Below are positions 5,847-51,395 of a stretch of 64,000 nt of DNA, piece after piece (the first letter of the stretch is position 1; each line of letters starts with the position of its first letter). The stretch covers positions 12,921,945 through 12,985,944 of the forward strand of contig NC_087079.1 of assembly GCF_026151205.1 (NCBI RefSeq), written 5' to 3'. This DNA is from Bolinopsis microptera. Lineage: Eukaryota; Ctenophora; Tentaculata; Lobata; Bolinopsidae. A program made the translations under genes and the position numbers. The notes below the pieces were generated by a model that worked only from the letters and a program-made list of their open reading frames with translations, was not told the origin of the DNA and did not search any database.

Positions 5847-7280
5847 TCATGTGTCTTTCATCACGACATCCTTCGTCTCTTTTTTGAATATTAACGCCAT
5901 CACAAATCCCAAGACCGAAGCAATCAAGATCAGTCCTGTCACGATATGAGGGTCCATGTAGTAGAAAACGCTAACAATACCAGAACCAAGGACGCCACCA
6001 ATTTTCCCACAGCCGTTAATAAAACCTGTGGCAGTGGTTCGAATGTTTGTGGGGAAGGTCTCAGGAAATATTATCCAGAGGATTGCATTAATGAAACCCC
6101 CGAAGAAGTTTACCGCTGAGATGACGAAAACAGTAATTGTGCTGTTTACACAAAAGAACATAGCAGCTATGAAAATCATTAAAAAGAAACCCGGAATTCT
6201 CAGGGATAGGCGACGTCCCAGACAAGCTGCGGAAACTGTAGCCAGTATATTCCCAACGACCAGTAGAACGGTGCTAATAGTTAGTTTAACCAGTTCTTCT
6301 TGATCAAGAATTGAACAAGTCCGTGTTGAATGGTTTCTGGACCCCGAACTGCATCCGTTCTTTATAATCAGAGGCTGGTAAAGGAAAAACGCAAACCCAA
6401 TGAGGACGTTACAAGAATATAGGACAGATAGAGTTACCATAGATCTCCTATGCTGAGAGCCAAAAATGACCGAATAAGAACCAAGATCTTCATTTCTTGA
6501 GCATGTTAACTTTAAGTCAGATGGAAGATGCTTCTTGTTAAGCTTGGCCATAAATCTAACAGATTGAAGTGCTTTATCGTGTTGCCCACTGACCAGAAAA
6601 TAACGAGGCGAGCCGGGAAGAAAAAATGTCAAAGCTAGAGCAGGAATAAAGGGTAAAGACATTACTATTATAAACCAACGCCAACCTATGTTATTCAACG
6701 TTAACCATGCAATAAAGTGGACTAACGCAGCAGCTGACGAAGTCACAATATTAAACATTGTCATCCCAATCAGGCGGTCCTTACTTTCAGAGAATTCCGT
6801 TGCGTAGCAAAGAATACAGTTCAAATTAGTTCCAATACAGGCTCCAGTGATACTCCGAAAAACTATGAAGACCCATTTATTTGGAGCAAGTGCACTGGTT
6901 ATTGTAGCTAAAGTCATTACGACCATTGACCATTTAAGAACCAATTTTCTTCCAAATTTATCAGAGATCTTTCCGAATGCTACAGCAAAGATTGCGTAGA
7001 AGATAAAAACTGACATGCTGACAGCGCCTTCAAATGTGAGTGACAACTTCCACTCACATCTTTGGAGCGGGAGTATAACTGCAATCATACCTATTTCTGC
7101 AATGTCGGAAACTGAAAGCAATCCAGTTAGAAGCCAATACAAATACTGAGCAGGTCCTCGACCTATTATCTTGTACACTTCATCAAGATCCAGCTCTTTT
7201 TCATCATCTTCCGTAGGTTCTCTTTCAGTTGTTATCGACCCGTAATCTTCGTTCCCTTTGTCTAAAAGAGTTTCTGCCAT
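5847..7280 (-). CDS. SVOP-like major facilitator transporter (copy A)
   Basis: Single-exon gene for a 477-residue, about 12-helix transporter of the SV2/SVOP branch of the major facilitator superfamily. The N-terminal tail is acidic and leads into DEVYKIIGRGPAQYLYW. The cytoplasmic motif GKISDKFGRK after helix 2 is MFS motif A. The loop GSPRYFLVSG after helix 6 matches the PESARY...SG region of SVOP, and FPETFPTNIRTTATGF in the C-terminal half matches the PE.YPT..R signature. The frame is open 22 codons further upstream, but I chose the start at 7280. There MAETLLDK aligns with MEETLLDK of copy B and gives the same length of 477 residues. The substrate cannot be read from sequence; homologs carry organic ions or nucleotides in vesicle or plasma membranes. 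The gene is in head-to-head orientation with copy B. Confidence 0.88.
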   Translation of the reverse strand: MAETLLDKGNEDYGSITTEREPTEDDEKELDLDEVYKIIGRGPAQYLYWLLTGLLSVSDIAEIGMIAVILPLQRCEWKLSLTFEGAVSMSVFIFYAIFAVAFGKISDKFGRKLVLKWSMVVMTLATITSALAPNKWVFIVFRSITGACIGTNLNCILCYATEFSESKDRLIGMTMFNIVTSSAAALVHFIAWLTLNNIGWRWFIIVMSLPFIPALALTFFLPGSPRYFLVSGQHDKALQSVRFMAKLNKKHLPSDLKLTCSRNEDLGSYSVIFGSQHRRSMVTLSVLYSCNVLIGFAFFLYQPLIIKNGCSSGSRNHSTRTCSILDQEELVKLTISTVLLVVGNILATVSAACLGRRLSLRIPGFFLMIFIAAMFFCVNSTITVFVISAVNFFGGFINAILWIIFPETFPTNIRTTATGFINGCGKIGGVLGSGIVSVFYYMDPHIVTGLILIASVLGFVMALIFKKETKDVVMKDT

Positions 7281-7527
7281 CTCTGTACTCTGTAGAATAG
7301 TTATTGAAGACAAGTAACAATTTAAGTCTATAACATGTATCAGCAAATTTAGAAACGCATTGATTTTGGCAGAAGTGATGGATCAATCAGCGTCAATAAC
7401 AGGCCAGTATGTCTGCAAAATTGGATGCCCAAAAAAATTAATCCAGGCTGAACTCAAAGAAATAAATAAATAAAACAAAAATTTATAAAATTTTTCAGCA
7501 AAAGTAACAACTACCAACATAAAGGAC

Positions 7528-7775
7528 CGCAATAGCAGTGCTCAATGTAAGTGTTAATGTACGCTCAACATTGCGGACACACAAATTAAAGTAAGATGAG
7601 CGAATGGGATAGTACTGTTCGTTTTTTAAATCCATCAGTGTTTCTTCCATACCTGCAATTTCAGTTTAACATTTCTTTATAAAAACTAGGGCCGGGGGGT
7701 GGAGGGATCATTATCATTTCCCTATAAAAATGTTTGAACTCCAGCTCCATTGCTTAATGGTGAAAATAGTAAAAA
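7528..7775 (-). pseudogene. Relic 5' fragment of a third SVOP-like gene
   Basis: On the minus strand an ATG at 7650 begins MEETLMDLKNEQYY, clearly related to the first residues of copies A and B. The upstream sequence (TTTATAAAGAAATGTTAAAC and a TTTTCACCATTAAG block) matches the 100 bp just before the start of copy B. The homology stops after about ten codons. The frame runs on for 47 codons to a stop, with no transporter sequence. The fragment lies in inverted orientation to copy B, so the intergenic region holds an imperfect inverted repeat left by duplication. A role as an alternative first exon for copy A is possible but unsupported. Confidence 0.6.
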
Positions 7776-8585
7776 ATTATATGTCATCTTAGTATTCCAA
7801 TCATAAATTGCGAACTCGTGTCGGGCTATCTGGATACTGTCCAACGTTTTCGCCGTCCTCTAGTTAGCAAATACAGCTATATTTTAGCTCTATTATATGG
7901 AGTATATTATATGGAGTATAATATTAGTATCAGAAATATATAATATATATATATTTTTTTTTCTATTTTGACTAAATCTTGACCCATTTCGACCGAAAAA
8001 TAATGAAAATGATACCTATTTTGCCCATTTATTCTCAAATTTTGGTCAAATATATATTCATCAGAGGTATGACCGCGTTTTATACCGCATTTAACAATGT
8101 GCAGCGAGCACACGTGTAAACAGTCTGTTTACAAAGTTTTAGGTCCGGCTATATTAGCTCTTCGTTACACATAGTTAGATGTGGTGTACAGTGTACACAC
8201 AATGTTGTGCACACAATTAATTGTACAATATATAACCTGGTCTTTGTTAGTTATTATAGGAAAACTTCCTCTTTAACTTAACTCATCGTCTCCATGGTTA
8301 CTCGTATTACAGATGTTCAAAGTTTTACTCCCGCTTTATACTTTTATACAATTGAATTATTTCGACCTTTGTTTATGAGACAAACCTTTAAGTTTAGATG
8401 ACATCATGGCAGGAATTGTTAGACTTTTTGTTTCTTAAGCTTAATTTTTACCATCGCTAATTTGACAGCACATTCGTTTCTTTACTATTTTCACCATTAA
8501 GTAAAGTAGTCCAAACATTTTAATAGGAAAACGGCAAGCCCCTCCTCAACATTTTATAAAGAAATGTTAAACTAAAATTACAGAG

Positions 8586-10019
8586 ATGGAAGAAACTCTA
8601 TTAGACAAAAAGCACGGAGAGTATGGGTCCACCACGACTGAAAAAGCACCTGAGGATGATGATGAAAAGGAGTTGGATCTTGATGAAGTGTACAAGATAA
8701 TAGGTCGAGGACCTGCTCAATATTTGTATTGGCTTCTAACTGGACTTCTTTCAGTTTCCGACTTGTCGGAAATATGTATAATTGCAGTTATAATCCCGCT
8801 CCAAAGATGTGAGTGGAAGTTGTCACCCGCATTTGAAGGTGCTGTCAGCATGTCAGTTTTTATATTCTACGCTATTTTCGCTATAGTATTTGGGAAGATC
8901 TCTGATAAATTTGGAAGAAAATTGGTTCTTAAATGGTCGATGATCATAATGACTATAGCCACAATAACCAGTGCACTTTCTCCAAATAAATGGGTCTTCA
9001 TAGTTGTTCGGAGTGTCACTGGAGCCTGTATTGGAACCAACATAAACTGTATAATTTGCTATGCAACGGAATTCTCTGAGAGTAAGGACCGCCTGATTGG
9101 GATGACAATGTTTAATATTGTTGCTGCGTCATCCTACGCCTTACTGTACTTTATTGCCTGGTTAATGTTAAATAGCATAGGTTGGCGTTGGTTTATAATA
9201 GTTATGTCTTTACCCTTGATTCCTGCTCTAGCTTTAACATTCTTACTTCCCGGCTCCCCTCGGTATTTTCTGGTCAGCGGACAAGATGATAAAGTGGTTC
9301 AATCTGTTAGGTTTATGGCTAAACTTAACAAGAAGCATCTCCCATCTGATTTAAAGTTATCATGCTCAAGAAAAGAAGATCTTGGTTCTTATTCTGTCAT
9401 TTTTGGTCCTCAACATAAGAGATCTACGGTAACTCTATCTGTCCTTTACTTTTGTAGTGTCTTTTTAACGTTTGCTTTCATCCTTTACCAGCCTCTGATT
9501 ATAAAGAACGGATGTAGTTCAGCTCCAAGAAACCAATCAACACGGACTTGTTCCATACTTACTCAAGAAGAACTGATCAAACTAGCAATTAGCACGGCTC
9601 CATTTGCTGTTGGGAATATACTGGCTACAGTTTCAGCGGCTTTTCTCGGACGTCGTTTATCCCTTAGAATATCTAGTTTCATATTTATTTTTGTCATAGC
9701 TGCCCTGTTTCTCTGTATGAACAGCACAGTTACTGTTTTCCTCGTATCAGCGGCTAACTTCTTCGGGGGTTTCATTAATGCACTCCTCTGGATAATATTC
9801 CCTGAGACCTTCCCCACAAACATTCGGACCACTGCCACGGGATTTATAAACAGCGCTGGAAAGATTGGCGGGGTTCTCGGTACTGGCAGTGTTAGTGTCT
9901 TCTACTACATGGATCCTAATATTGTTACTGGACTGCTTTTTACTGCTTCAGTTTTGGGATTTATTATGACTTTGATATACAACAGGGAGACGAAAGATGT
10001 TGTGATGAAAGACACATAG
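8586..10019 (+). CDS. SVOP-like major facilitator transporter (copy B)
   Basis: Intronless 477-residue paralog of copy A, on the opposite strand, intact from start to stop. It shares the acidic N-terminal tail, motif A (GKISDKFGRK, about residues 95-104), the GSPRYFLVSGQ loop near residue 225, and the C-terminal FPETFPTNIRTTATGF motif near residue 405. Differences from copy A are mostly conservative changes within helices and in the large extracellular loop before the seventh to eighth helix region (about residues 310-335). That loop has two cysteines and an N-glycosylation-type NQST. Intactness of both copies implies selection. Absence of introns in both suggests that a retrocopy or an ancestrally intronless gene was duplicated. 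Substrate unknown. Confidence 0.88.
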   Translation: MEETLLDKKHGEYGSTTTEKAPEDDDEKELDLDEVYKIIGRGPAQYLYWLLTGLLSVSDLSEICIIAVIIPLQRCEWKLSPAFEGAVSMSVFIFYAIFAIVFGKISDKFGRKLVLKWSMIIMTIATITSALSPNKWVFIVVRSVTGACIGTNINCIICYATEFSESKDRLIGMTMFNIVAASSYALLYFIAWLMLNSIGWRWFIIVMSLPLIPALALTFLLPGSPRYFLVSGQDDKVVQSVRFMAKLNKKHLPSDLKLSCSRKEDLGSYSVIFGPQHKRSTVTLSVLYFCSVFLTFAFILYQPLIIKNGCSSAPRNQSTRTCSILTQEELIKLAISTAPFAVGNILATVSAAFLGRRLSLRISSFIFIFVIAALFLCMNSTVTVFLVSAANFFGGFINALLWIIFPETFPTNIRTTATGFINSAGKIGGVLGTGSVSVFYYMDPNIVTGLLFTASVLGFIMTLIYNRETKDVVMKDT

Positions 10020-11157: not shown

Positions 11158-13639
11158 TCAAATGTCTTCGTATGTGTTCTCATTCGTTTCCTTCATTTCA
11201 TCATGATTTTCCATCACATCTTGATCCTGATCACCACTGTTCAGATTGTTCAAATTAACATTTTGACCACTTTCACCATCTTCTACCAGAGTAACAGAGT
11301 TGGCTCTATTGTGTGGAGTATTAGTTGTAAACGATCCCACTGAGACCCCCTTTTCGACAACAGGGTCATCAAGAACATTGCTATGATGGCAAAATTTTAC
11401 ATAGCTCCAGATCAAAAATACTACAGCCAGAAAAGCGGCAATCCCAATCAACCCATTCCTCAGTAATTTTACAGTATTCTCATATTGCTCATCCTTAGCT
11501 TGAAGTTTCTTGATATCTTGAGACTGGTCACTTACCTTGTAACAAAAACCTCTCTCCACTTGGAAGCCCCGGGGGCACCTGTTACAATGAACTCCGTCAC
11601 CAAACAGGTGATCTGGGCACTGATAACAAGCATGGTCTGCCCAATACTGTCCAAAGACACATCTGTAGCAGCTGTCAGATCCTTGTCTTGATGTCTTGAA
11701 AATTGGACACTTTCTGCAATAGGTTGCCCCAAACTGGCTGAAATAATTTGCTGGGCAAATCTCACATTCTGTGGTGTTACCAATAGCCATTTTATATCCT
11801 GAATTACAGAAGCACTTTGAGGAGCCTCTCCAAGATCTAGAATTTTCTGGACACTCCATACACCCGGTACTGTTGGTAACGTTCATAAAGTGATCGTAGG
11901 AGCATTCCTCACAGATACTTTTGTTAAAATTCCAGTAATTTCCAGCAGGGCAAGTACAGAATGCCTGGTAAGGAGACGATGTAGAATTGTTTGGACAAGC
12001 AGTACAATTTGTGTCACCGGAGTAGCTGTAAAAGTTATCAGGACAGATCTTACAGTAACCTCCGTCCATGAACAGACCTCCAGAGCAATTACAGTGGTCA
12101 GATCCAGGAGCACTGTGTGATCCAGGTACACATGTCTCGCAGGTCAGGGAATCACCAGTCACTGTAACTGTCTTCAGCACATTCCTCACAAGCTTCCGCT
12201 GTGATATTGAAGAATTGTCCAGGATTACAAGTACAGAATGACGATCCCACTGTTGAGTTGCTGTCAGCCGGACATGACAAACAATCTGTGCTACCAGACG
12301 CGGGACTGTAGAAGTCTGTGGGACATGGGCTGCACACTCCATAGTCTGACATGTACAGACCAGCATCACAGTCACAAATCTCAGATCCGGGGGAGGATGT
12401 GGAATTAGCCGGGCACTCAGAGCAATGAGAGAATCCACTAGAACTAAAAGTGTTTGCTGGACACACTGAACAATTTTCGTTAGACCAGAACTGCCCCGCC
12501 GTACATCTACACTTCTTTGATTGAATGTAAGAAGTAGATCCGTTAGGGCATGCTGTACAATCAGAAGCTCCTGTGAGACTGTAAGTGTTAACCGAACAGG
12601 CATGACAATTCCCATCAGACCAGTGTTCCCCCGCATTGCAGGCACACATTCCTGATCCAGCGACTGATGTTGTACCAGCTGGACATGACGTACATTCGTT
12701 GGAGCCAGCTATGCTATAGGTGTTTGCCGGGCAAGCTGTGCAGTTGCCATTTGACCAGGACATTCCTGAAGGACAATAACAGATATCTGATCCGGAGGAG
12801 GAGGTTGAGTTTCCAGGACATTGGTTACAGGATGTGGAACCCAGGCTACTGAAAGTGTTTTTAAGACAAAGTGGACAGTTTCCGTTTGACCAGTATTGGC
12901 CTGCTCTACAATTGCAGGTTGTTGAGTCCTCTGGAGAAGTAGCACCTGTTGGACAAGAAACACAAAGATTTCCAGATACGAAAGAGTTGGCTTTACAGCC
13001 CGAGCAAGATATCTTGGCGTAGTAGAATCTCTTGTTGTTGCTGTTCCTGTAATAGCACGAGTAGAGCGTAATGTATTCGCACGAAGTAGAATTTGAACAT
13101 GTCAGGTTGAAAATCTTCTCTTCTGATTTGTACGCCTCAGCGAAACTATAGTCATTCTGCAGACTCCCGGTTGATTCCAGTTTTTTGTAGTTCATACTCT
13201 CGCAGATATACTGAGCGGACGGACTGTCAGGATGATAGTCCATAGAGCTGTATCTGCGGCAAATGGGAGTGTTCTGTCGTCCCTCTATACTAGCCATGAG
13301 GACGCCAGTGTTGGATTGTATTGTACTGGAACTCCAGATGGAGAACTGGACTTCGTTCGGCACAACTGTTGCGAAATTTCCTGAAATTAAAAATAATAGT
13401 TGTTCAAAAACATCATCTTGATCAAACGTGATACTTACTTAAAGGCTTTTATCACCAGCGCATTTTACTATTATTATCATAAAAATTAACAATTTTTGAA
13501 AAAGAACAATTCTTGAAAAAGAACCATTTTTGAAAAAGAACATTTTGAATTTGATCTTTCACTTACCAGAAAATCTGATGAATAAGGTAAGGACGCAAAT
13601 TATCCTAGGGTTGATCACTGAGCGTTGATGATACCACAT
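11158..13639 (-). pseudogene. Cysteine-rich ephrin-receptor-like membrane protein, paralog 1 (frameshifted)
   Basis: Exon 1 (13639-13567, 73 nt) encodes a signal peptide (MWYHQRSVINPRIICVLTLF...) and ends in a consensus donor GTAAGT. Exon 2 begins at 13380 after TTTCAG in matching phase 1. It encodes an N-terminal domain (FSIWSSST...CESMNYKK), then many about 48-residue GCC2/GCC3-type repeats of the form CxxCPxxTxSxxGSxxCxCxxGxxWSNGNC. A transmembrane helix and a charged tail ending NTYEDI follow. At about 12157 one extra base relative to both paralogs shifts the frame. The upstream frame then stops at 12152-12154, and the repeats resume in the next frame at the sequence encoding GDSLTCETCVPGSH. 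As read, the product would be secreted and truncated within the ectodomain, without membrane anchor. Ligand and function unknown. Such arrays occur in adhesion and receptor ectodomains. Confidence 0.8.
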
Positions 13640-14693
13640 GGCTGGGTGAATATTAGTTATGAAAGTAACATGAACAGTTATGGTGAACGAATAAATTGAA
13701 ACTGCAAATCGACGAAACGTACTGGACAAGAGTTTAATGACAGGAGCCGTCTTTCTTATTTTGTCTGACAGATTGAAGAACAGACCACAGCTAGACTTTA
13801 TGACTACACGAAACAAACAATTTTTGTGGATATGAAGCTTGATACATAAGAAATCCTGATAGCTGCAGACCGCAAATACCCTATTGTAATAAATATTATG
13901 TGATATTATTGTAGTTAAGAACATGCAAGATGCCATAAAAGTAAGGAAACTGACATTTAGTGGATGTCAAATTAAGAGAAGATTTTATCCAGATCCACTT
14001 GTTTGTTGCTGTCTTGGACTAACATTATGTGTGACAGCTTTATTTATAACTTATTTTTACAGTGATGATTTTATTTTTAATGAAAATGCCTGATGATTTT
14101 TGGAAACTTTGATCATTATTTACATTGTTTGTCATGACTAAATGGTTCAAATATGTGAGATTTAAGAGATTTATCAAATGACCTGTCAACCTTTGCCAAA
14201 GAAACTGCACGTTTCGAGGAAAATCATGACAGGTATGGTATCGATTACTACCCTATTTTGAACGAATTTAGTATTACATAACCGGAAAAAGAAACATTTT
14301 TGTTTGTAGTTTTCGGTTGGTTCATTATTTAATACCAAATGAGAGTTAAAAATGAAAGTGGCATTTCTAAATGAATAATTGATTATTAGAATACAACGAA
14401 GAACATTAAATACTAATAATTCAAGAGCAAATACGAGAAATCAAAATCATCATAAATTAAAAAAATCTTCATAAATTTCGTTCACTCAGATAATGTTCAT
14501 GAACGTTTTGTTTACACTTTCAAGTTTCAATTAAACAAATTTATTTTTTATTTTTCAATTAATCTAACCCGGCTTTTTGAAGAAAAATAACTTCGAAAAC
14601 TAAACTTTCTATTAATTTCTATTAATTTTTCTGCTCATTGAGCTTTGTCGTCCTTTCATCTCAAATAATTCTCAATATTTCCTCCTTTCAATT
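13640..14693. other. Intergenic between receptor paralogs 1 and 2
   Basis: Contains the 5' flank of paralog 1 and the 3' flank of paralog 2. The block at 14340-14690 (TTATTAGAATACAACGAAGA, then ACCCGGCTTTTTGAA) recurs at about 17745-17790 and 18220-18430. This shows that the duplication unit of paralogs 2 and 3 includes downstream sequence. No separate gene seen. Confidence 0.5.
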
Positions 14694-17310
14694 CTATAAA
14701 ATATGGTTTATATCTTCGTAAGTATTCTCTTCCTCACCGTTATCTCCACCATCAATTCCACGCCCAATACACATTTCTCTCACGGCATTATCGCCGTCAT
14801 CCAAACCTTCTCCCATCTGCGTTTCTGTAAGTTTTACTGGGAATGATGGTTCACTATTGGCAAAATTGTTTTCCTCCTCCTGCTCCTCTGTCTCTGTAAC
14901 GTCTGTCATCCTCACTTTAACGGTGCTTTGTCCTTTTCCGAAGAGTTTTAAGGGGTTAGAGCCTCTGTAAAGTGTAACATAGCACAAAATCAGTAAAATA
15001 GTGAAGATTACCACAAACGCTGGTGCCGCTAATACTCTGTCCGTTTTTTCAACTTTTTCTAGCCGTGCTACCTCTTCCGACTCATCACTTATTTTGTAAC
15101 AGAAACCTTTCTCCACTTGGAAACCCCTGGGACACTCATTACAATGGACTCCGTCACCAAAAAGGTGATCAGGACATTGTAAGCAAGAATGATTAACCCA
15201 AAACTGTCCTAAAGTGCATCTATAACAATATCCAGAGCCTTGTTTGGAAGCTTTTAAATGTGGACATTGAGTGCAGTTCAGGGATCCAAACCTGCTATAA
15301 TAGTTTTCTGGACAAATCTGGCATTTTGTTGTGTTGGTTGAATCATAAACCATTTCGTACCCAGCTTCACAATCACAGATTCTGGCGCTCATATTTGACG
15401 ATGAGTGAACTGGGCACCTGGTACATTTTGTGCTATTGGTGGTATCCGTGTAGCTGTTTTCAGAGCAGGATGTGCAGTTGTTCAATGTGAAGTTCCAGAA
15501 GAAACCTCTTGGGCAGGAACAAAATGCCTGATGCACAACTGAAGTTGAGTTTCCAGGACAGGCAGTACAATTTGTGTCACCAGAGTAGCTGTAAAAGTTA
15601 TCAGGACAGATCTTACAGTAACCTTCGTCCATATACAGACCTCCAGAGCAATTACAGTGATCAGATCCAGGGGCACTGTGTGAACCAGGTACACATGTCT
15701 CGCAGGTTAAGGAAGCCCAAGAACTATAAGTCTCTGCTTCACAATTGTTACAAGTCCCATCTTCCAGGTTGAAATGCTGACCGGCAGGACACTTGCAGAA
15801 TGATGAGCCTGCAATAGAGCTGCTGTTAGATGGACACTTCGAGCAAACTGTGCTCCCTGCTGTACTGTAATAGTCTATTGGACAGATTCTGCAGACACCC
15901 AGGTCCATGAATAGACCAATTGCACAGTTACAGACTTCTGATCCAGAGTGGGACGTTGAGTTTACTTGACAGGGAGTACAGGATGTTGATCCTGCGGAGC
16001 TGAAAGTGTTTTGTGGACAATTTGTACAATTCCCATTCGACCAGTATTTACCTGCCTGGCAATCACATCTAGATGACCCAGGGTAAGATACTGAGCCGTC
16101 TGGGCAGGAATCACATCTTATAGACCCCTCTAAGCTGTAAGTGTCTGCTGGACAAACGTTACAATTCCCTTTGCTCCAGTGATGGCCCTCCATACAATCA
16201 CACATACCTGAGCCTGCTTGTGAGTTTGAGCCACTTGGACAAGCAGTGCAGCTGGTAGATACTGCTGTGCTGTAGGTGTCAGTTGGACAAGTTATGCATC
16301 TTCCTCTCGACCAGTTTTTACCTGCTTTGCAAGCGCACATGGCTGATCCTGAATGGGACGTTGCCCCAACAGGACATGGTGTACACTGTTTAGAACCTTC
16401 AGCGCTGTAGGTGTTGGCAGGACAGACTGGACAATGTCTGTTAGACCAGTACCTTCCTGCTTTACATCTACACTCCTCTGATCCGGTACTAGATGTTGAG
16501 TCTGTAGGACATTGAGTGCAGGATGTGTAGCCTTGTTCGCTGTAGGTGTTGACTGGACAGGCAGGACAGTTATCGTTAGACGACCAGTATCTTCCTGCTT
16601 GGCACTCGCATTTGTTGGAGCCACTAGTGGATGTTGAGTGGGCTGGACAAAGTGGGCAGTTTCCGTTGGACCAGTATTGACCTGCTCTACAATTGCAGGT
16701 TGTTGAGTCCTCTGGAGAAGTAGCACCTGTTGGACAATAAACGCAGAGACTTCCAGATACGAAGGAGTTGGCTTTACAGCCAGAGCAAGATATCCTTGTG
16801 TAGTAGTAATATCTGTAACAACTGGACGAGGTCGAGTAGGTGCAGGATTGTGGGCTAGCGCATTGGAGATTATATGGTTTGGTGGTAGAAACGTAGCTAT
16901 CTGCAAAACTGTAACTGTACCCAACATATCCAATTGAAGCAAGGTTTTTGTAGTTCATACTCTCACAGATGTACTGGAGGGGTAGTAAGAATTGCTTGAG
17001 GACTTTCTGTAACAAACGGGAGTCTTCTGTGCACCTGATCTACTCGACATGAGAACTCCAGTTTTAGACTGTGCAGTGCTAGAACTCCAAATAGAGAATC
17101 TGACATCTTCTGGCACCCTCTCAGCTCCACCTCCTGAAATAAAGCATCTTAATTTTTACTTCTTTATTAATTCGTATCGACAATAACCATTGCTTCAATG
17201 GAAAATAATTCCAGAAAAGTGTGTTGTGCCTAAATCGAAAAATGTGGTTTTTAAATAAGCTAACCTAGAATAACTGTCATAACTGTCACACAACAGATTC
17301 TCCAAAACAT
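14694..17310 (-). pseudogene. Cysteine-rich ephrin-receptor-like membrane protein, paralog 2 (5' frameshift)
   Basis: Exon 1 (17310-17265, 46 nt) encodes a signal-peptide start (MFWRICCVTVMTVIL) with a GT donor. Exon 2 starts at 17133 after TTTCAG in matching phase. The frame from exon 1 runs through FSIWSSSTAQSKTGVLM but meets a stop soon after position 16982, because about 13 nt present in paralog 3 (and the matching region of paralog 1) are missing there. Downstream, an uninterrupted frame of about 770 codons encodes roughly 13 GCC2/GCC3-type cysteine repeats, many NST/NCT glycosylation sites, a transmembrane helix and an acidic tail ending NTYEDINHIL. The long frame therefore lacks a signal peptide in this assembly. 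This is the longest ectodomain of the three. Receptor-like adhesion protein by architecture; ligand unknown. Confidence 0.78.
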
Positions 17311-18423
17311 GTTACAGCTAAAGAAATTGGAGCGAATGAAAAAATTGTTCTCAAAAATTGGTTTTTCTTCTTTCAACCCGTGTCTTAGTCGTGGAGCACC
17401 TATCTTGTCATGAGATTTGCAACACGGGGTTTATTTCACTGTCCACGCTATTATCTAATTTGCTTTTTGTACTAAATTTCTAATCAAGTTGGTCATGAGT
17501 CTGTTCCCATGCCTTGTCAAGACTGCAAAGATAACAAAAAAGACTGCCATTTATCATCATTGAATTATTGAAATGATGTTATAATCTTTGTCGTGAATTA
17601 TTATATAACATGTTACTTGTTTTATTTGATGTAAGTAAAATCGAAATGATAAAATGCGTTAATATGGTGATAAGAATAAAGCAGAAAATGATGTTATTAA
17701 TCTAAAATTTATACGGTATTGGTTTTCTAAATTTATAATTTATTATTAGAATACAACAAAGAACATTAAAAACTAATAATTCAAAACTGAGTGGAGTTGG
17801 GTTAAAAACATATAAGAGATACGATGATTTAACTTGTAGAAGCTTTCAATAAACATGTGTTAATCGTCGTCAGCTGAATGTGATGTGGTGGACAATGCTT
17901 ATATGTGATTGAGTGGTGTCAGGGATGGAGGGTGGGGGAGGTGTGGGTGGGAAAGTGAAAATTACAGTACAATGTCAATAAAAATTTAGTCTTCTGTTGA
18001 GGTTGAGAAGGAAATGCCAGATGGTCTGGACTTTAAGGATTTGGCAATTTTAGGAAGAATGGGGTCCCAGAGGGAACTACATTTGGGTGCGCGGTCTGTT
18101 CTGTTCATAGCTGGTTGTCGTATTTGTATAGCTGCGTGTTCTGTGAGGTCAAGTTGGGAGCGTGAGGTGAGGTCAACAACAATTATTAGAAATTAAATTA
18201 ATCCTAAATCAACTAAATCTTGATAACCTTTGTTCACTTACATAATGTACATGAACTTTTTGTCTACACTGTCAATTAAACAAATTTATTTTTAATGTAC
18301 CTTACCCGGCTTTTTGAACAAAAATAACTTCGAAAATTAAACTATATATTAATTTTGCTGCTCTTTGCGCTTTTTTATCCTTCCATCTCAAATAAGACTC
18401 AATATTCCCTCCTTTTAATTCTA
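17311..18423. other. Intergenic between receptor paralogs 2 and 3
   Basis: Includes a unique G-rich insert (about 17880-18190, with GGGATGGAGGGTGGGGGAGG) between blocks that are duplicated near 14400-14690. No coding frame is convincing. Confidence 0.4.
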
Positions 18424-20828
18424 TTAAATATGGTTTATATCTTCGTAAGTATTCTCTTCCTCATCGTTATCTCCACCATCAATTCCACACCCAATACATA
18501 TTTCTCTCACGGCATTTTCGCCGTCATCTAAACCTTCTCGTTCCGTTTCAGTAAGTTTTAGTGGGAATGGTGGTTCACTATTGGCAAAATTGTTTTCCTC
18601 CTCCCGCTCCTCTGTCTCTGTAACGTCTGTCATCCTCACTTTAGCGGTGCTTTGTCCTTTTCCAAGGTTAGAGCCTCTGTAAAAAGCAATGTAGCACAAA
18701 ATCAGTAAAATAGTGGAGATTACCACAAAGACTACTACAACTAATACTCTGTCCGTTTTTTCAACTTTTTCTAGCCTTGCTACGTCTACTCTCAGCCATT
18801 TGATGATTTTGCCATATTCTTTCTCTTTGTTTTGAAGAGACTGAACCTCTTCCGACTCATCACTTATTTTGTAACAGAAACCTTTCTCCACTTGGAAACC
18901 CCTGGGACACTCATTACAGTGAACTCCGTCACCAAATAGGTGATCAGGACATTGTAAGCAAGAATGATTTACCCAATACTGTCCAAAAGTGCATCTGTAA
19001 CAATATCCAGAATCTGGTTTGGAAGCTTTGAAATGTGGACATTTAGTGCAGTTCAGGGATCCAAAACTGCTGTAATGGTTTTCTGAACAAATCTGGCATT
19101 TTGTTGTGTTGGTTTAATCATAAACCATTTCGTAGCCAGCTTCACAATCGCAGAGTTTGGCGCTCATCTCTGACGATGAGTGAACTGGGCAACTGGTACA
19201 TTTTGTGCTGTTGGTGATATCCGTGTAGCTGTTTTCAGAGCAGGATGTGCAGTTGTTTAATGTGAAGTTCCAGAAGAAACCTGGCTGACAGGAACAAAAT
19301 GCCTGATAGGTAGAAGACGTGGAATTGTTTGGACAAGCAGTACAATTTGTGGCACCTGAGTAGCTGTAAAAGTTTTCAGAACAGGTCTTACAGTAACTTT
19401 CGTCCATGTACAGACCTCCAGAGCAATTACAATGATCAGATCCAGGAGCACTGTGTGAACCAGGTACACATGTCTCGCAGGTCAGGGAATCACCGTCACT
19501 GGAAGTCTCTGCTTCACAATTGTTACAAGTCCCATCTTCCAAGCTGAAATGCTGGCCGGCAGGACATTTGCAGAATGATGAGCCTGCAGTAGAGCTGCTG
19601 TTAGATGGACACTTCGAGCAAACTGTGCTCCCTGTTGTACTGTAATAGTTTATTGGACAGATGATGCAGACACCCGAGTCCATAAATAAACCAGCTGCAC
19701 AGTCACAAACTTCTGATCCAGAGTGGGACGTTGAGTTTACTTGACAGGGAGTACAGGATGTTGATCCTGCGGAGCTGAAAGTGTTTTGTGGACAATTTGT
19801 ACAATTCCCATTCGCCCAATATTTTCCTGCCTGGCAGTCACACATAGCTGATCCTGAATGGGACGTTGCCCCAACAGGACATGGTGTACACTGTATAGAA
19901 CCTTCAGCGCTGTAGGTGTTGGCAGGACAGACTGGACAATGTCTGTTAGACCAGTATCTTCCTGCTTTACATCTACACTCCTCTGATCCGGTGCTAGACG
20001 TTGAGTCTGTAGGACATTGAGTGCAGGATGTGTAGCCTTGTTCGCTGTAGGTGTTCACTGGACAGACTGGACAGTTACCATTAGACCATAACCAGTATCT
20101 TCCTGATTGACACTCACAACTGTTGGAGCCATTAATGGATGTTGAGTGGGCTGGACAAATTGGGCAGTTTCCGTTTAACCAGTATTGACCTGCTCTACAA
20201 TTGCAAGTTGTTGAGTCCTCTGGAGAAGTAGCACCTGTTGGACAAGAAACGCAGAGACTTCCAGATACGAAGGAGTTGGCTTTACAGCCAGAGCAAGATA
20301 TCCTGGCGTAGTTATAACTGCCGTAACAACTGGACGTGGTCGAGTAGGTGCAGGATTGTGGGCTAGTGCATTGGAGATTATATTGTTTGGTGGTAGAACT
20401 GTAGCTCTCTGTAAAACTGTAGCTGTTCCAAACATTTCCAATTGAAGCAAGGTTTTTGTAGTTCATACTCTCACAGATATACTGGGCAGATGTGCTAGTT
20501 GGGTAGTAAGAGCTGAAGGAGTACCGTATGTAACAAACGGGAGTCTTCTGTGCACCTGATCTACTCGCCATGAGAACTCCAGTTTTAGATTGTGTAGTGC
20601 TAGAACTCCAAATAGAGAATCTGATATCTTCTGGTACCCTATCAGCTCCACCTCCTGAAATGAAACTCCTTAATTCTTATCCCTATTTCTTATTCTTTAT
20701 GAAGAATTCGAAACACTTTTGCTTTAAATAACGGAACTGATTGCTATACAGAAATGGAAATAATTGGTTTTGATAACCTCACCTAGAAATACTGTCATTT
20801 CTGCCAAAATACAAATTATCCAAAGCAT
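18424..20828 (-). pseudogene. Cysteine-rich ephrin-receptor-like membrane protein, paralog 3 (nonsense codon)
   Basis: Exon 1 (20828-20783, 46 nt) encodes MLWIICILAEMTVFL, a hydrophobic signal sequence, ending CTAG|GTGAGG. Exon 2 (20654-18424) starts after TTTCAG; the joined codon is GGA and the frame continues through the FSIWSSSTTQ N-terminal domain. GCC2/GCC3-type repeats, fewer than in paralog 2, follow. At 19116-19114 a TAA replaces the TCA serine codon that paralog 2 has after GYEMVYD. Beyond it the same frame is open and encodes the last repeats, a short predicted coiled coil (near SLQNKEKEYGK), a transmembrane helix and an acidic tail ending NTYEDINHI. Without readthrough the protein would lose its membrane anchor. 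A soluble form is conceivable, but a recent pseudogene is simpler. Confidence 0.8.
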
Positions 20829-21344
20829 GTTAAATTGTCAAAGCTAGAGATTTCAGTACGAAAAAAATACTCTACTCACAAATGTATGTTCTCGAGACCC
20901 ACGATCGACTAAGTCCTAGAGCACCTATTTTTTCACGAGATTATCGCGAGTTTTCTTTGACTGTCCACGCTATTGTCCTATTCGCTTTTTGTTCTAAATT
21001 TCTGAACACGTCGGTGATCTGGACTCATGAGCTTGTTCCCATGTCTTGTTAAGACTGAAAAGATAGAGTAAAAACACTGCCATTATCATCGTGCTAAAAC
21101 TTTAACTATAATTTTGTCTCTGTCCTAAATTCTTGCAGAACAGTGTTTAGTCAATGTAATCAATCGCGGGATTTTGTATACTTCATACAGGGTGATACAA
21201 AAATTGAGGCCTAATGCAGTAATGCAGGTCCGCTATCAAATTTAAAGTACCTATAACTATATAATAAACTATTTATAATAATATAACAAATAACGATAAC
21301 AATAAACTTAATACACAACAACCCGCTAACCTCAACATTTTTAG

Positions 21345-24137
21345 GAGACAGTTGGTATCCTGGTGGTGGACAATGTTCTAGAAGCTATGCGTATAGGCAT
21401 GGAGATAAACCAGCCTCAGTACAACCAGAGGAGGATCTCTGAAGCGAAACTCCTGGGAGAACTGTATAACTATAGGATGATTGAGAGTAATATTATTTTC
21501 AATTCTCTTTATCTCGTTATCTCCTTCGGAGCTCTACCTGATGGTGGGTATTTTTGAAGTTTGCTTGCATTTTAAGTCTCATTAATCTATTCAATAAGAT
21601 GTAATTTTTATTTAGGTTTTTACCAAATTATTAAACTATTAAAATCGTGCGTAATATCTCAAACTTATTTTGATATGTAGTATTAATTCTTTTCATGCAA
21701 CAACGTCTTCATGTTTAAATGTATCCTGGGTTTGGACAGGATATTGCCCGTTTAAAATATTTCCATCGCGTTACACAATACTCAATAAATGTATTAGATT
21801 TGTAGTGTTGTAATTAGTTTTAAAATATGATTTTCTTATTATATTAGTACCCATCGTTAATTTAATCTTTTAAAGAATAACTGATCCTCTGAAACAATCT
21901 AGGAACGAACCCGATTGACCAGCCCGCTGACATGATAAGAACGAGAATAGTTATCACTATACTGGAGACTTGTGGGCAATATTTCGAGAAGGGGTCTCTT
22001 AAGAAGAAGTGTGATATCTTCTTACTCTTCTTCCAGGTGGAGCAGTCTTCTCAATTTATTATAACTAGCAGGAACCCGTATAACCCTAAAATAGTGTCAA
22101 GACTCAAGAGACTAAAATATTTATTACCTATTTAATTCGCGTTTTTGACACCACTTGGGGGTTCAAATTTTGGACTCTAAAACTCCTATTCCTTGGCCAA
22201 TTTTTTATTTTTTCATGCTGATTTGGAGGCCATTAAAGCATTTGACCCAGTCAAAAAAGTATCAGTTGTATATCTTTTACGGTTTTTGCGGAAAGTCGTG
22301 TTAAAGTTGATGCTGTGGTGTCAGTAAAATGGTACGGATAAACACATCCATATATATCGTCTCGCTTTATATATAGTAAGATGTACCTCACACTTGTCAT
22401 TTCTTTACTCTTGAGGCTTTCAGTTACTTTCAGTGTCACCATTTTTCAAGGTAAAAAATTGGTAGATTTGACGCTAGTAAAGCTTGTTATCCGCTCTGTG
22501 TCAATATATTATGTTCACTTCCAGTTTCTCCACTTTTCAAGGCTTAATATTAGTATCTGACGCTGGGAAAGTTTTTTCTTGTTCTCTGTTTAAACATTAT
22601 ACCCTCGCCAGAAATACCTGTTTACGAAAGTACAGCCACTCCCAATAGACGTGGAGTACAGCATACAGGATACTCTGGAAAGCATCCGACCTAACATTAC
22701 CATGTACCCTTCTGTCGCTGAGGTGGATCTGGCTATTGCTGAGATATCTCCGCAACTAAAGAACCTTCTAGGTACCTGGTGATCCTTGTTTAGTTATATT
22801 GTTCTTTCTTTTACATAAGCCGCTATCAAAGTGTAGATAAATCCACCGTATCTGGGTTTTGGGAGATTGAGGTAGATTTGTTTATTTATATTTTAATTAA
22901 ATGTCATTGTAAACCTCTCTAATTATTTACAGGAAGTCAAGAAGACGCAGAAGAAACAGAAGAGGACGAGGATACGGAGACTGAAGACCAGGGACCAGGA
23001 GAAGAGACACCCGATGAGAACGAGGAGGAGCTCCAACTCAACAAGAAACTTGAGGTAAGGAATTTGGCGTATCGTGATAATATCTGTTATACAAAGCACC
23101 TTAAACTTTCATAAGTTTAAACTTTAAATTTTAATTGTGGATTATTTAACAGTGTATAAAAAATACCTTAACGTGTATAAACGACTCACAAGCTTTTATA
23201 AATTTCGGGTTATCAAACCGAGCGGTACCTGCGCCTATTCACAACAGTTACCATTGCAGACAGTAAAGTGCGAGGAGGATGACGAGTTCATCGCAGAACT
23301 GGAGCGTACTATGACGTCAGAACTGACCGGGAGAAAGATGGACAGTACAGTTAACAAAGTAAACAGTAGTGACCTTGCCCTGCCTATGAATAGGGGCTTC
23401 AAAGGTTTGTCACAGTTACCATTCAAGATGTGCACAATATATCAGCACTTCACTTAAACTTTTCAACTTTAAAGTTTAACATCTTTCTTCTACTCCCATG
23501 ATCATGATTTGTCCGTGTAGACGTGTTGGCCAACTCGATTTGTCTAATTCCTACTATGTATAAAAAGTGATTGACAGTATCTAGGTCTAATTACTTCTTG
23601 CACGAGCTGTCAACTTAATGTATTCCTACAGGACACAAGATTGAGGGAAACTCCGTGCAGTTCAGTGTCATGATAAAGAAAGGTTCCAAACAACAATTCA
23701 AGAAGATGGATATTCCAGTGGAGTCTGACTTTGCAAGTAACCTGTTTGACAAGCAGAAAGCAGCGGTTAGGGAACGAGAGGAGATGAAAAGGCTGGTGTT
23801 GAGTCAGGAGATGAGACAAGAAGAAGAGGAGCTAATGGTGAGTTTCCGGACTATATTACTGTCTGTTTCTGAGGAGCTCCCTGACATTTTATGGAAAATA
23901 TTTTCTTGTTTTTTGGAAAGTCAAAGGTATCCCTGATTTTGATCAAACGTTCTAATGTCTCCAATGTAACCGATAACAATGTAGACTTGCTAATATCTCT
24001 AATCTCTATCTCAGGCTGAACAGTTGGATCAGCACAAGACTTCCGGTGTGACCTACCGAGCTGGGGAACGGAAACAAAAACCCAGGAAAGCTCCACAGCT
24101 TACGACAGACATGTTCAACTTCAGCAGTGCCAAATAA
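21345..24137 (+). CDS. UPF2: UPF2 (nonsense-mediated decay), C-terminal part only
   Basis: Seven exons join in frame: 21345-21543, 21903-22036, 22612-22771, 22933-23054, 23260-23404, 23632-23837 and 24015-24137 (stop TAA), together about 362 residues. The first exons match the end of the third MIF4G domain of UPF2, with VDNVLEAMRIGMEINQPQYN, RRISEAKLLGELYNYRM and TILETCGQYF. That domain binds UPF3 and SMG1. An acidic linker (DAEETEEDEDTETED) follows, then the UPF1-binding region with VMIKKGSKQQFKKMDIPVES. All junctions are GT-AG with consistent phase. The first two MIF4G domains are missing. The next sequence upstream is the oppositely oriented receptor array, and I see no candidate exons in 20830-21344. 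Either the 5' exons lie far upstream with the array nested in an intron, or this is a partial duplicate. Confidence 0.88.
22064..22382 (+). repeat. Dispersed repeat, copy 2, inside UPF2 intron
   Basis: Same orientation and borders as the copy at 5021-5342. It lies in the intron between the second and third UPF2 exons seen here and does not disturb either splice site. It is likely a short non-autonomous mobile element. Confidence 0.85.
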
Positions 24138-28994: not shown

Positions 28995-31370
28995 AGGATA
29001 CAAGGATACAAGGATACAAGGATACAAAAGTGATAATTATTTTATTGAGTTCACAATAGTTATAATTCTGAAATAATTTAAGTTACACACTTCTAATCAT
29101 TTACAAATGTGTAGGGATAAAATAGAAATGTTATAATATAATGCTATTTTCTTTAAGTAAATCAAATTTGTATGGTTCATGAGTTTATTTTGAGTTCCTA
29201 GAGCATTATGCACTTGCCAGTATTTGAGTGGAAATCTGGGCTCTTATAATAGGCTGTATATTGTTCGTTCACAGAGAGAATTGAATGGATTGCTCTTGCT
29301 GTGGCAGTAAATTTGGTAGGATCTAGATTTTTGTTGGAGAGCAGACCGGCTAGGTCAGTGATGTTTTGGGGATAAAAGTTGAATTTTTCCCTAACTGAGG
29401 AGTAAAGCAAACAGTCAATTAATACATGGCTTTCGTCCTCGATAGGTTTGAGCCCTTTACTGAAAAAGCAGTAAGTGCACCAACGTTCTTCTCTTGGTAC
29501 AAGAGGGGTTTCGTATCTGCCCCTTTCAACGTAGAGGTTGTGGCAGCTGATACGAAACCTTGTCAAGCTTTTTCGAAAATCAGGTACTTTGATTATTCGT
29601 AGGTATGCCTCTGGTTCAAAATCATGTTTAATTAAGTTATAGAATTCTAGTTTTGGTGAGGAGGCCTTGGCAGATTTCCAGGTATTCACGAATTCTTCCC
29701 TCATATTATGACTGATTTGGGTGGAGAGCTTAGATTTTGATGAAGATGAGTGGGGGAAGTTGTATTTGGTGAGAAGCTTTGAGATGTTGGTATACCAAGG
29801 AAGGCCCAGCATGATCTGCTCGTGAAATGCAGCACAAAGTAGTTCATTTTCGGTGCTTTCAAGGCGACTATAGTAATCTATTGCAAGTTTGCAGGCTTCA
29901 AAGAATAGGGGGTGGCGCCCACTTTCGCCCCAGCAACCTATATTTGATGCTTTTGAATGGACGGACAAAGACCACTTGATAAATTTTAGGTGGAATTTCT
30001 CATAGTGGTCCTGTGCAATGTACTTCAGGGTATGCTGGGGGCTGGCTTTGTCATCTATTTTTGAAAGGTATCTCATTGTTTTAGAGTGGGGGCATAAGAC
30101 TTGACAGCCATAAAGCAGGATTGGTTTGATTAAGGAATCAAATAGAATATTAAGGGCACGGTGAGAGAGGGCATCTTTAACTATATTGCCTTTAAGGCCA
30201 TATAGAGCACGGAGAGCTTTGGCCCTCAGCTCAGTATTTGCTGCCGTAAAGGATCCATTTCTGTGGAATATTATGCCAAGATAGCAGTACTTTTCGGTGT
30301 GCTGGATGGGCTGACCTCCCAATGTAAATGTTTCATGGGACTGCTTCTTTTTGGGAGGGCTGAATATGACAATCTTAGTTTTCTTTATATTTACTTCAAG
30401 GCCCATGGAGTTACAGAAGTCAGATAGAATGTTGATATTGACTTGCAAGGCCTTGGGACTTAGAGCAAGAAGGACAAGATCGTCAGCCCAGAGCAGATGT
30501 GATATTAGAACGTCAGCAAGAACTGGATAATCACCAACAGATTTCAGAAGAGATGACAAGTTATTAATATAGATTTTAAAAAGGTCTGGTGATAGGGGGT
30601 GTCCTTGCTCCGTTCCTTTGCCAATATCAATTTTAGGGGACAAGAGTTTGGAGATTTTTATATGAGCAATTGAGTTTTTGTACATATCACTTAAGCAGTT
30701 AAAGAAGTTACCGGTAATTCCAAGGCATGTTATTTTGTGCAGAAGAAGGTCCCTACATACAGTGTCAAAGGCCTTTCTTAGATCAACAAAGCATGCATAG
30801 AGACGAGCTTTTTTAACTTTAGTGTATTTATCAATGACTGTCTTTAGGGTGAAAACGTGATCATTAGTTTGAGCACCCTTCGAGAAACCGAGCTGTTCTT
30901 TTGGATCAGGACAGTAGAGCTTTTTGAAGTATAACAGACGTTCAAGTAAAATGCTAGAGAACAGCTTACCCATACAACTGCCAACTGCTATTGCTCTGTA
31001 ATTGTCTGGGCTGAAGGGGTTGCCTGATTTGTAGATAGGAGTGATAATACTGGTATGCCATGGATAGTAACCTGAGACCAGAGAGTGGTTGAACGTTTTG
31101 AGGATGTCTTGGAGACAAAGCGGAGTTAGGCTCTGAAGCATTTCGTTTGAGATCAAGTCATTTGAGCAACTTTTACCCTTTTTGAGCTTTTTGATTGCAG
31201 AAGTTAGTTCGGGTTCAGATATGAGCTTGTTTAGGATATCCAGATCTGGTGGTTCAGGGTAATGATTGTGATTGTGGTGAGTGGGATCGGGCTCCTGGTC
31301 TGGTTTCTTATAGAGGGATGCAAAGAAATCATGAAAGCTAGCTAGATCGAATTTGTCTAGTAGGGGGCTT
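28995..31370 (-). mobile_element. 5'-truncated non-LTR retrotransposon (LINE)
   Basis: The minus-strand frame is open from the truncation point at about 31367 to the stop at 29198. It encodes the end of the linker and the reverse transcriptase, including LTSAIKKLKKGKSCSNDLIS, ITPIYKSGNPFSPDNYRAIA, FVDLRKAFDTVC, GTEQGHPLSPDLF and the catalytic WADDLVLLAL. A C-terminal domain follows with a WCTYC...H...C zinc-knuckle-like pattern. The endonuclease domain is absent. The 3' UTR ends in four to five tandem copies of an 8-bp unit (on the plus strand ACAAGGAT, near 28998-29030), the microsatellite tail typical of several LINE clades. The truncation and tail are what target-primed reverse transcription leaves. 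Clade not assigned. Confidence 0.9.
29198..31367 (-). pseudogene. LINE reverse transcriptase, intact 3' part of ORF2
   Basis: About 720 codons without a stop, starting at the 5' truncation point rather than at a genuine start codon. The fingers, palm (AFDTV and WADD) and thumb regions and the C-terminal cysteine/histidine region are all present. Lack of internal stops suggests a fairly recent insertion. Without an endonuclease and promoter it should not mobilise itself. Confidence 0.85.
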
Positions 31371-49675: not shown

Positions 49676-49984
49676 TATAATTATATATATATAGGGGGGG
49701 GGGGTGTCACGTCCGTCTATGTCCGCTTGTCTCATAGAATCCAAAAAGGACAGGACATAGGCGGACATAGGCGGACATAGACGGACATAGGCGGACATAG
49801 GCGGACATAGGCGGACATAGACGGACATAGGCGGACATTAATGGCCTGGACACCTAAATTGCTAAATAAAATGTTCAATTTTTGCTGTTATAGGGGGATC
49901 ATGTTTTTTGTCCGTTCGGTACCCTATATTTTCAAAACGGACAAAAAATAGAGCGGACAAAAACGGACAAAAATGGAAATAACA

Positions 49985-51245
49985 TTTAAATGCTTCCTCC
50001 TCCTACTCTTCCTCCTCCTCCCCCTGGGTCTTCCTGATCTTCCTCAGTCCTCTTCCTCCTCCCCTCCTCAGTCCTCCTCCTACTCCTCCTGACTCCTCCT
50101 CGTCCTCAGTCCTCCTCATCAGTCCTCAACAGTCCTCCTCCTCCCCAGTCCTCCTCCTCCTCCTGAGTCCTCCTCCTGGGTCCTCCTCCTGGGTCCTCCT
50201 CCTCCTCTTCATCCTCCTCCTCTTCCTCCTCAGTCCTCAGTCCTCCTCAGTCCTCCTCCTCATCCTTCTCCTCAGTCCTCCATCCTCCTCCTCAGTCCTC
50301 CCCCAGTCCCCCTCCTCCTCCTCCTATTCAGTCCTCCTCCTCCTCCTCCTTCTCAGTCCTCCTCAGTCCTCCTCCTCCTCCTCCTCTTCCCTCTCAGTCA
50401 TCCTCCTCAGCCATCCTCCTCAGTCCTCCTCAGTCCTCCTCCTTAGTCCTCCTCCTCCTGGGTCCTCCTCCTCCTCTTCATCCTCCTCCTCTTCCTCCTG
50501 AGTCCTCCTCCTGAGTCCTCCTCCTCCTCCCTCTCAGTCATCCTCCTCAGTCATCCTCCACAGCCATCCTCCCCAGCCATCCTCCTCAGCCATCCTCATC
50601 AGTACTCCTCAGTCCTCCTCCTTCTCAGTCATCGTCAGTCCTCCTCCTCAGTCCTCCTCCTCCTCCTGGGTCCTCCTCCTCCTCCTCCTCCTGGGTCCTC
50701 CTGGGTGTTCCTGATCCTCCCCAGTCCTCTCCCTCCTCCCCTCCTCAGTCCTCCTCCTACTCTTCCTCCTCGTCCTCAGTCCTCCTCATCAGTCCTCAAC
50801 AGTTCTCCTCCTCCCCAGTCCTCCTCCTCCTCCTGGGGCCTTTTCCTGGGTCCTCCTCCTGGGTCCTCCTCCTCCTGGGTCCTCCTTCTCCTCCTCAGTC
50901 CTTCTCCTCCTCCTCCTCAGTCCTCTTCCTCCTCTTCCTCCTCCTCCTCCCTCTCAGTCATCCTCCTCAGCCATCCTCCTCAGCCATCCTCCTCAGTCCT
51001 CCTCCTGAGTCCTCCTCCTCCTGAGTCATCCTCCTCAGTTCTCCTCCTCAGTTCTCCTCCTCCTCCTCCTAGGTCCTCCTTCTGGGTCCTCCTCCTCCTC
51101 CTCCTCCTGGGTCTTCCTGATCCTTCTCCTCCCTCTCAGTCATCCTCCTCAGTCATCCTCCTCAGTCATCCTCCTCAGCCATCCTCCTCAGCCATCCTTC
51201 TCAGCCATCCTCCTCAGTACTCTTCAGTACTCTTCAGTCCTCAAA
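49985..51245 (+). repeat. TCC/CAGTCCTCC polypyrimidine tract, about 1.25 kb
   Basis: Nearly pure pyrimidine on the plus strand, built of (TCC)n with recurring CAGTCC, GGGTCC and CAGCCATCC variants. Larger blocks (GGTCCTCCTCCTCCTCTTCA and neighbours) are themselves repeated. Open frames in it (for example the Ser/Pro-only frame at 50705-51280) are by-products of the repeat. Mirror-symmetric pyrimidine tracts of this kind can form triplex DNA. Confidence 0.93.
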
Positions 51246-51275
51246 ATGTTTTTCCGCTAATATTCACCAATGTCC

Positions 51276-51395
51276 GCTAATGTCCACCAATGTCCATCCA
51301 AGTCCGCCAATGTCCGTCCGGGTCCGCCAATGTCCGTCCGAGTCCGCCAATGTCCGTCCGAGTCCGCCAATGTCCGTCCGTGTCCGCCAATGTCC
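51276..51395 (+). repeat. GTCCGCCAATGTCCGTCC minisatellite
   Basis: Eighteen-bp units such as GTCCGTCCGAGTCCGCCAAT repeat about six times inside the right end of the 1.8-kb insertion. A related ACATAGGCGG/ACATAGACGG repeat sits in the left end (49755-49838). Confidence 0.88.

What the first reader, a model, noticed from the sequence alone, without database searches (positions are those of the whole stretch)
11158..20828. Three tandem receptor paralogs, each broken by a different single lesion
Paralog 1 has one extra base (about 12157), paralog 2 lacks about 13 nt near 16982, and paralog 3 has TCA to TAA at 19116-19114. Everything else (signal-peptide exon, splice sites, repeats, transmembrane helix, tail) is intact in each. 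In the same window about 9 kb of other coding sequence (UPF2 exons, CAPZB, ARF, UBC9, two transporters, BTB) has no frameshift or nonsense codon, which argues against general sequencing error. Possibilities: young pseudogenes, presence of functional alleles in the population, or a locus where broken copies donate sequence by gene conversion, as in variable receptor systems.
Basis: partly seen in the sequence, partly recalled or inferred. Interest (0 to 1): 0.7.

Follow-up and report, generated by a model that had tools for sequence, protein, structure and literature searches.

The report
Four broken comb-jelly receptor gene copies
Three neighbouring genes for a scavenger-type surface receptor in what appears to be a comb jelly genome, plus a fourth copy on another chromosome, are each interrupted by one different, apparently recent mutation while the rest of each gene looks preserved, a pattern already known from other fast-changing receptor families.

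Summary
Three tandem two-exon receptor genes each carry one lesion: an extra base at 12157, 13 nt missing near 16966-16983, and TAA at 19114-19116. Start codons, splice sites, transmembrane segments and tails are intact. By size and largest chromosome the genome matches the ctenophore Bolinopsis microptera. A fourth close copy, on contig C6, has its own single TAA: 4 of 4 close copies found are broken. And the N-terminal domain is a diverged SRCR domain, ahead of ELAPOR/TNFR-like repeats. The lesions look young: repeats show dN/dS 0.23-0.29 among g2, g3 and C6, and no ectodomain cysteine is lost. Gene conversion is supported; one converted island in g1 begins at its frameshift. Background: 1 of 16 other loci broken, but 3 of 4 C5 relatives left out of that count are damaged too. 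Best reading: recent null copies, fixed or segregating, of a birth-and-death receptor family, like single-defect C. elegans chemoreceptor genes. A donor-bank reading lacks an intact close acceptor here. The published assembly used wtdbg2 plus Pilon, so assembly error is weakened, not excluded.

The parts
11158..13639 (-). g1: two-exon receptor gene (exon 1 13567-13639, exon 2 11158-13380)
12152..12157 (-). g1 lesion: one extra base at 12157, followed by TGA at 12152-12154
11985..12156 (-). g1 converted island 2, starting at the lesion; edges approximate
   Evidence: the repeat finder family D4 (11927-12156)
12867..13013 (-). g1 converted island 1; edges approximate
12995..13381 (-). g1 diverged SRCR domain
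14694..17310 (-). g2: two-exon receptor gene (exon 1 17265-17310, exon 2 14694-17133)
16966..16983 (-). g2 lesion: 13 nt missing; the single ATCTG at 16966-16970 is where g3 and C6 have two
18424..20828 (-). g3: two-exon receptor gene (exon 1 20783-20828, exon 2 18424-20654)
19114..19116 (-). g3 lesion: in-frame TAA
20284..20655 (-). g3 diverged SRCR domain, the one modelled
20829..22902 (.). flank that was copied to C6 with the fourth gene copy; includes UPF2 3' exons; 22065-22404 not aligned

Best explanation
These are recently inactivated copies of a single-pass surface receptor: signal peptide, diverged SRCR domain, a row of ELAPOR/TNFR-like cysteine-rich repeats, transmembrane helix, and a tail ending in a tyrosine motif. 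The family grows by tandem and segmental duplication and is shuffled by gene conversion; copies then lose function by single independent events (a base gained at the edge of a converted island, a loss between short direct repeats, two nonsense codons). Shown: the lesions, the architecture, the fourth broken copy, the conversion signatures, past purifying selection in the repeats. Inferred: that the lesions are true germline changes, that they are recent, and that they are newly fixed or still segregating with working alleles, as for single-defect receptor genes of C. elegans. Which of the two holds is not known.
For: 4 of 4 close copies found have exactly one lesion, all different. Repeats dN/dS 0.23-0.29 at dS about 0.2 among g2, g3 and C6. 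Of 78 cysteine columns 2 have another residue, both outside the ectodomain. If C6 and g3 had evolved freely since the C6 duplication about 10.8 lesions per copy are expected, one is seen (P 2.4e-4). Conversion: clustered mosaic sites (0 of 20,000 shuffles), longest shared fragments p 0.0003-0.0019, g1 islands with dS 0.12-0.37 against saturation elsewhere. Precedent in print: PMC2576165 (passages).
Against: With nonsense changes alone the expectation is 3.1 and the P of at most one is 0.18, so the age argument rests on the indel rate (9 frameshift-size indels per 80 substitutions in four hand-chosen flank segments). One assembly only; no reads, no second individual, no RNA. The published assembly used wtdbg2 and Pilon. 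More distant C5 copies are damaged too, so loss is not confined to this clade.
Confidence: 0.72

Rival explanations
1. Some or all lesions are assembly or polishing errors in a paralogous, possibly heterozygous region; the genes are intact in the animal.
For: The published assembly was made with wtdbg2 and polished with Pilon (PMC10232365, passages). Paralogs share stretches of high identity. The g1 lesion is a 1-base insertion.
Against: Only 1 of 16 other superfamily loci is broken; P of 4 of 4 is 0.001, or 0.0066 with the four C5 copies included. The other three lesions are two nonsense codons and a 13-nt loss between direct repeats, unlike the usual long-read error (recalled). C6 lies on another contig. 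The survey is not a random sample.
Confidence: 0.15
2. The truncated genes are functional and make secreted receptor ectodomains (decoys). All lesions lie in the last exon, so the messages may escape exon-junction-dependent decay.
For: Predicted products keep signal peptide, SRCR domain and repeats in three copies: 433 aa (g1), 528 aa (g3), 512 aa (C6).
Against: g2 would make only 74 aa. Transmembrane and tail sequences downstream remain well kept, which is not expected if they had long been untranslated. No expression data.
Confidence: 0.07
3. The broken copies are a sequence bank that donates to a working acceptor by gene conversion, as chicken immunoglobulin pseudogenes do.
For: Conversion between copies is supported; dN/dS is higher in the N-terminal domain (0.58-1.27) than in the repeats (not tested for significance).
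Against: No intact close acceptor was found (the tool gives lower bounds). Germline homogenisation of tandem copies explains the islands. Start codons and splice sites are kept in all four copies, unlike typical donor segments (recalled).
Confidence: 0.04

Closest known systems
Single-defect ('flatliner') chemoreceptor genes of C. elegans (PMC2576165, passages seen)
   Same: Receptor copies interrupted by one stop, frameshift or small deletion; about half of the defective genes there have a single defect and several have likely functional alleles in wild isolates.
   Different: Those are G-protein-coupled receptors of a nematode; here an SRCR/repeat single-pass receptor, all 4 close copies found are broken, and alleles could not be examined.
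Ctenophore SRCR-containing receptors (PMC11797021; passages and section 6 part 1 of 2)
   Same: SRCR domains with unusual partners in Mnemiopsis; the Fig. 3c legend lists TNFR among the partner domains.
   Different: Here the SRCR domain is too diverged for the Pfam model, and broken copies are the point.
ELAPOR1 (PDB 9vql, 9vqm; Pfam PF23091)
   Same: Cysteine-rich repeats match the ELAPOR1 TNFR-like Pfam model above cut-off and a solved chain.
   Different: The PDB match covers about 120 residues of the repeats only; nothing in that match corresponds to the N-terminal domain or tail.

Membership tests
SRCR domain | Recognised by the Pfam SRCR profile | tested here: not met
   No SRCR hit for the g3 and g1 N-terminal domains at E up to 10, nor for two relatives of this group at E up to 1
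SRCR domain | Related to canonical SRCR domains by profile comparison | tested here: met
   hhalign probability 95.6, E 1.3e-8 against eight domains of the same genome, one of which was checked as PF00530, 7e-11
SRCR domain | SRCR fold | tested here: met
   AlphaFold2 model, pLDDT 79.2; the first 37 of 45 Foldseek rows are SRCR structures by title or by recall, best probability 1.00, but best E 0.011 and none at or below 0.001
ELAPOR/TNFR-like cysteine-rich repeats | Pfam PF23091 above its cut-off | tested here: met
   4 of 5 pieces above cut-off; the short g3 3' piece scores 27.9 against 33.2
Ephrin receptor | Intracellular tyrosine kinase domain | tested here: not met
   No kinase family among the Pfam hits; the tail is short
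Young pseudogene or null allele | Frame broken, few lesions, past purifying selection | tested here: met
Young pseudogene or null allele | Lesion present in the animal and fixed or segregating in the population | not testable with these tools
   No reads or second individual available
Gene-conversion diversification system with pseudogene donors | Conversion tracts between copies | tested here: met
Gene-conversion diversification system with pseudogene donors | Intact close acceptor gene | tested here: not met
   No other close copy found in this assembly; working alleles elsewhere not testable

The most novel reading that the evidence does not exclude
The locus is a polymorphic recognition-receptor system of a ctenophore in which working and null alleles are balanced and conversion among linked copies keeps making new SRCR/repeat combinations; the sequenced haplotype happens to be null at all four close copies.
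Probability: 0.08. Interest if true: 0.75.

Novelty: new member of a known kind. Interest (0 to 1): 0.35.

Why it matters
If the lesions are real, a whole close clade of SRCR-type receptors has been interrupted copy by copy in one ctenophore. That makes it a clean place to ask whether such receptors are being lost or kept as null/working polymorphisms in an early-branching animal. It also shows a diverged SRCR domain that the standard Pfam profile misses, so domain counts based on that profile may be too low.

Tried and rejected
Misreading of the lesions was rejected. A long-dead pseudogene was rejected. Protein constraint alone as the cause of the g1 islands was rejected because synonymous divergence is low there too. 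COX1 as a species marker had no match in this assembly. A genome-wide SRCR count (PF00530) did not complete. The contrast of g3-C6 repeat divergence (28 of 169 four-fold sites) with the copied flank (80 of 1349) has p 8e-6, but intron 1 of the same two copies differs at 15 of 127, so local rate differences weaken it; the flank figure uses four hand-chosen segments and leaves out poorly alignable stretches. dN/dS of 1.27 in the N-terminal domain of g3-C6 was not tested for significance. A profile search of the PDB with the N-terminal domain gave no SRCR hit (one hit, E 1.8). One search was an arbitrary pattern used to learn the genome handle; no match.

Rows left out of the 16-locus background: C5 copies in L034 and L035 (one intact, one with stops and a deletion, one lacking its N-terminal part, one with no tail in the 1.6 kb held); L038 (fewer than three repeat hits); L049 and L050 (overlapping hits of a shorter-period repeat, no break flagged). 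Stops and a frame change in L037 were counted as introns. Some loci are held only in part. The Fisher test used an earlier, lower count (154 repeat units); the tally is 173.

Full report
What is there. On the minus strand lie three two-exon genes in tandem: g1 (11158-13639), g2 (14694-17310) and g3 (18424-20828). Exon 1 codes for a signal-peptide-like stretch, exon 2 for the rest; boundaries are GT-AG in all three. Each gene has one lesion and no second one was seen: an extra base in g1 at 12157, 13 nt missing in g2 near 16966-16983, and TAA at 19114-19116 in g3. At the g2 site g3 and C6 have ATCTG twice, 13 nt apart, and g2 has it once, which suggests a loss between direct repeats.

Which genome. 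The assembly has 264,652,675 bases in 232 contigs and its contig C1 has 26,206,493 bases. A table in PMC11797021 gives 265 Mb, 13 chromosomes and a largest chromosome of 26.2 Mb for the ctenophore Bolinopsis microptera, but 346 scaffolds (passages). I infer this species; no marker gene confirmed it (COX1 not found). Its published assembly used wtdbg2 and Pilon (PMC10232365, passages).

A fourth copy. A protein search found one more close relative, on C6, in three pieces at 85-93% identity; a DNA search found no further close copy (this tool gives lower bounds). The C6 copy runs from an ATG at 3231947 to a stop at 3229669 and is broken by one TAA of its own at 3230269-3230271. It came with about 2.1 kb of g3's upstream flank, including 3' exons of UPF2. 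So 4 of 4 close copies found carry exactly one lesion, all different.

What the protein is. Pfam recognises the repeats as ELAPOR1/TNFR-like and Ephrin-receptor-like, and phmmer finds ELAPOR1 in the PDB over about 120 residues. The N-terminal domain has no significant Pfam hit. Several relatives in the same genome have a canonical-looking SRCR domain in that place; one was tested and matches PF00530 at 7e-11. Profile comparison links the two groups (probability 95.6, E 1.3e-8). An AlphaFold2 model (pLDDT 79.2) matches SRCR structures first: the top 37 of 45 Foldseek rows, by title or by my recall of the protein, with probability up to 1.00 but a best E of only 0.011. So this is a single-pass receptor with a diverged SRCR domain and cysteine-rich repeats. 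The tails end in or near NTYEDI and several relatives end in similar tyrosine motifs; that such motifs can bind SH2 domains is recalled, not tested.

Age of the lesions. Among g2, g3 and C6 dS is 0.19-0.21 and dN/dS 0.37-0.38; in the repeats dN/dS is 0.23-0.29. Of 78 cysteine columns 2 have another residue, in the transmembrane stretch and in the tail. If C6 and g3 had evolved freely since the C6 duplication (80 differences in 1349 aligned flank bases), about 3.1 nonsense and 7.7 frameshift lesions per copy would be expected; one is seen. P of at most one is 2.4e-4 for both kinds together but 0.18 for nonsense alone. The lesions look young compared with the copies; the strength rests on the indel rate.

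Gene conversion. Variable sites of g2, g3 and C6 support the three groupings about equally (93, 80 and 104 sites) and lie in runs (0 of 20,000 shuffles as clustered); longest shared fragments have p 0.0003 to 0.0019. Intron 1 differs at 38 of 114 positions between g2 and g3, four-fold sites of the coding part at 24 of 266. In g1 two islands have dS 0.12-0.37 to the other copies, against saturation in the rest of the ectodomain. The second island begins at the g1 frameshift, so that lesion may be an out-of-register conversion junction; this is inference.

Is it assembly error? I scanned repeat units by frame in 16 other loci (173 units) and saw one broken locus, an 8-nt insertion near C13:9198340. 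Four of four against one of sixteen gives p 0.001. Four more distant copies on C5 were left out; three of them are damaged or incomplete in the stretch held. With them the figure is 0.0066, and damage is not confined to the focal clade. The survey is not a random sample. The 1-base insertion in g1 could be an error; the other three lesions are less like one (recalled).

Comparison. In C. elegans chemoreceptor families defective genes are about equally divided between single and multiple defects, and several have likely functional alleles in wild isolates (PMC2576165, passages). SRCR expansions with unusual partners are published for Mnemiopsis (PMC11797021, passages and section 6 part 1 of 2). 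Five searches of the held library listed no title about this locus; I opened parts of two of the listed papers, and of PMC10232365, whose number I recalled.

Verdict. Most likely these are recent null alleles or young pseudogenes in a receptor family under birth, death and conversion (0.72). Assembly error remains the main rival (0.15).

Noticed in passing
window 5847-7382 (-) and 8571-10019 (+): Inverted pair of transporter-like ORFs (about 86% identical over 1447 nt), both open; dS 0.42, dN/dS 0.23. A local control: older duplicates than g2/g3, neither broken.
   Followed up: partly
L028 (C13:9195850-9199401), about 2491-2513: 8-nt frameshifting insertion in an otherwise open SRCR-plus-repeat gene: another single-lesion member of the superfamily.
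   Followed up: partly
L035 (C5:13857000-13866900) and L034 (C5:13678500-13684500): Second group of related receptors: one intact with a further intron, others truncated, or with stops and an internal deletion.
   Followed up: partly
L031 (C6:3225500-3235400), 6449-8146: Copied fragment of UPF2 3' exons that came with the C6 receptor copy.
   Followed up: partly
L032:1366-5250 (-): 1295-aa open frame with an F5/8-type C (galactose-binding-like) domain, an SRCR-like stretch and many cysteine-rich repeats.
   Followed up: partly
window 29198-31369 (-) and 60516-61907 (+): Long ORFs that look like a LINE-type reverse transcriptase and a retroelement gag with a CCHC motif (names by eye, no family search).
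   Followed up: no
window 49983-51280 (+): Low-complexity stretch open in several frames (Ser/Pro/Leu runs), probably a simple repeat.
   Followed up: no
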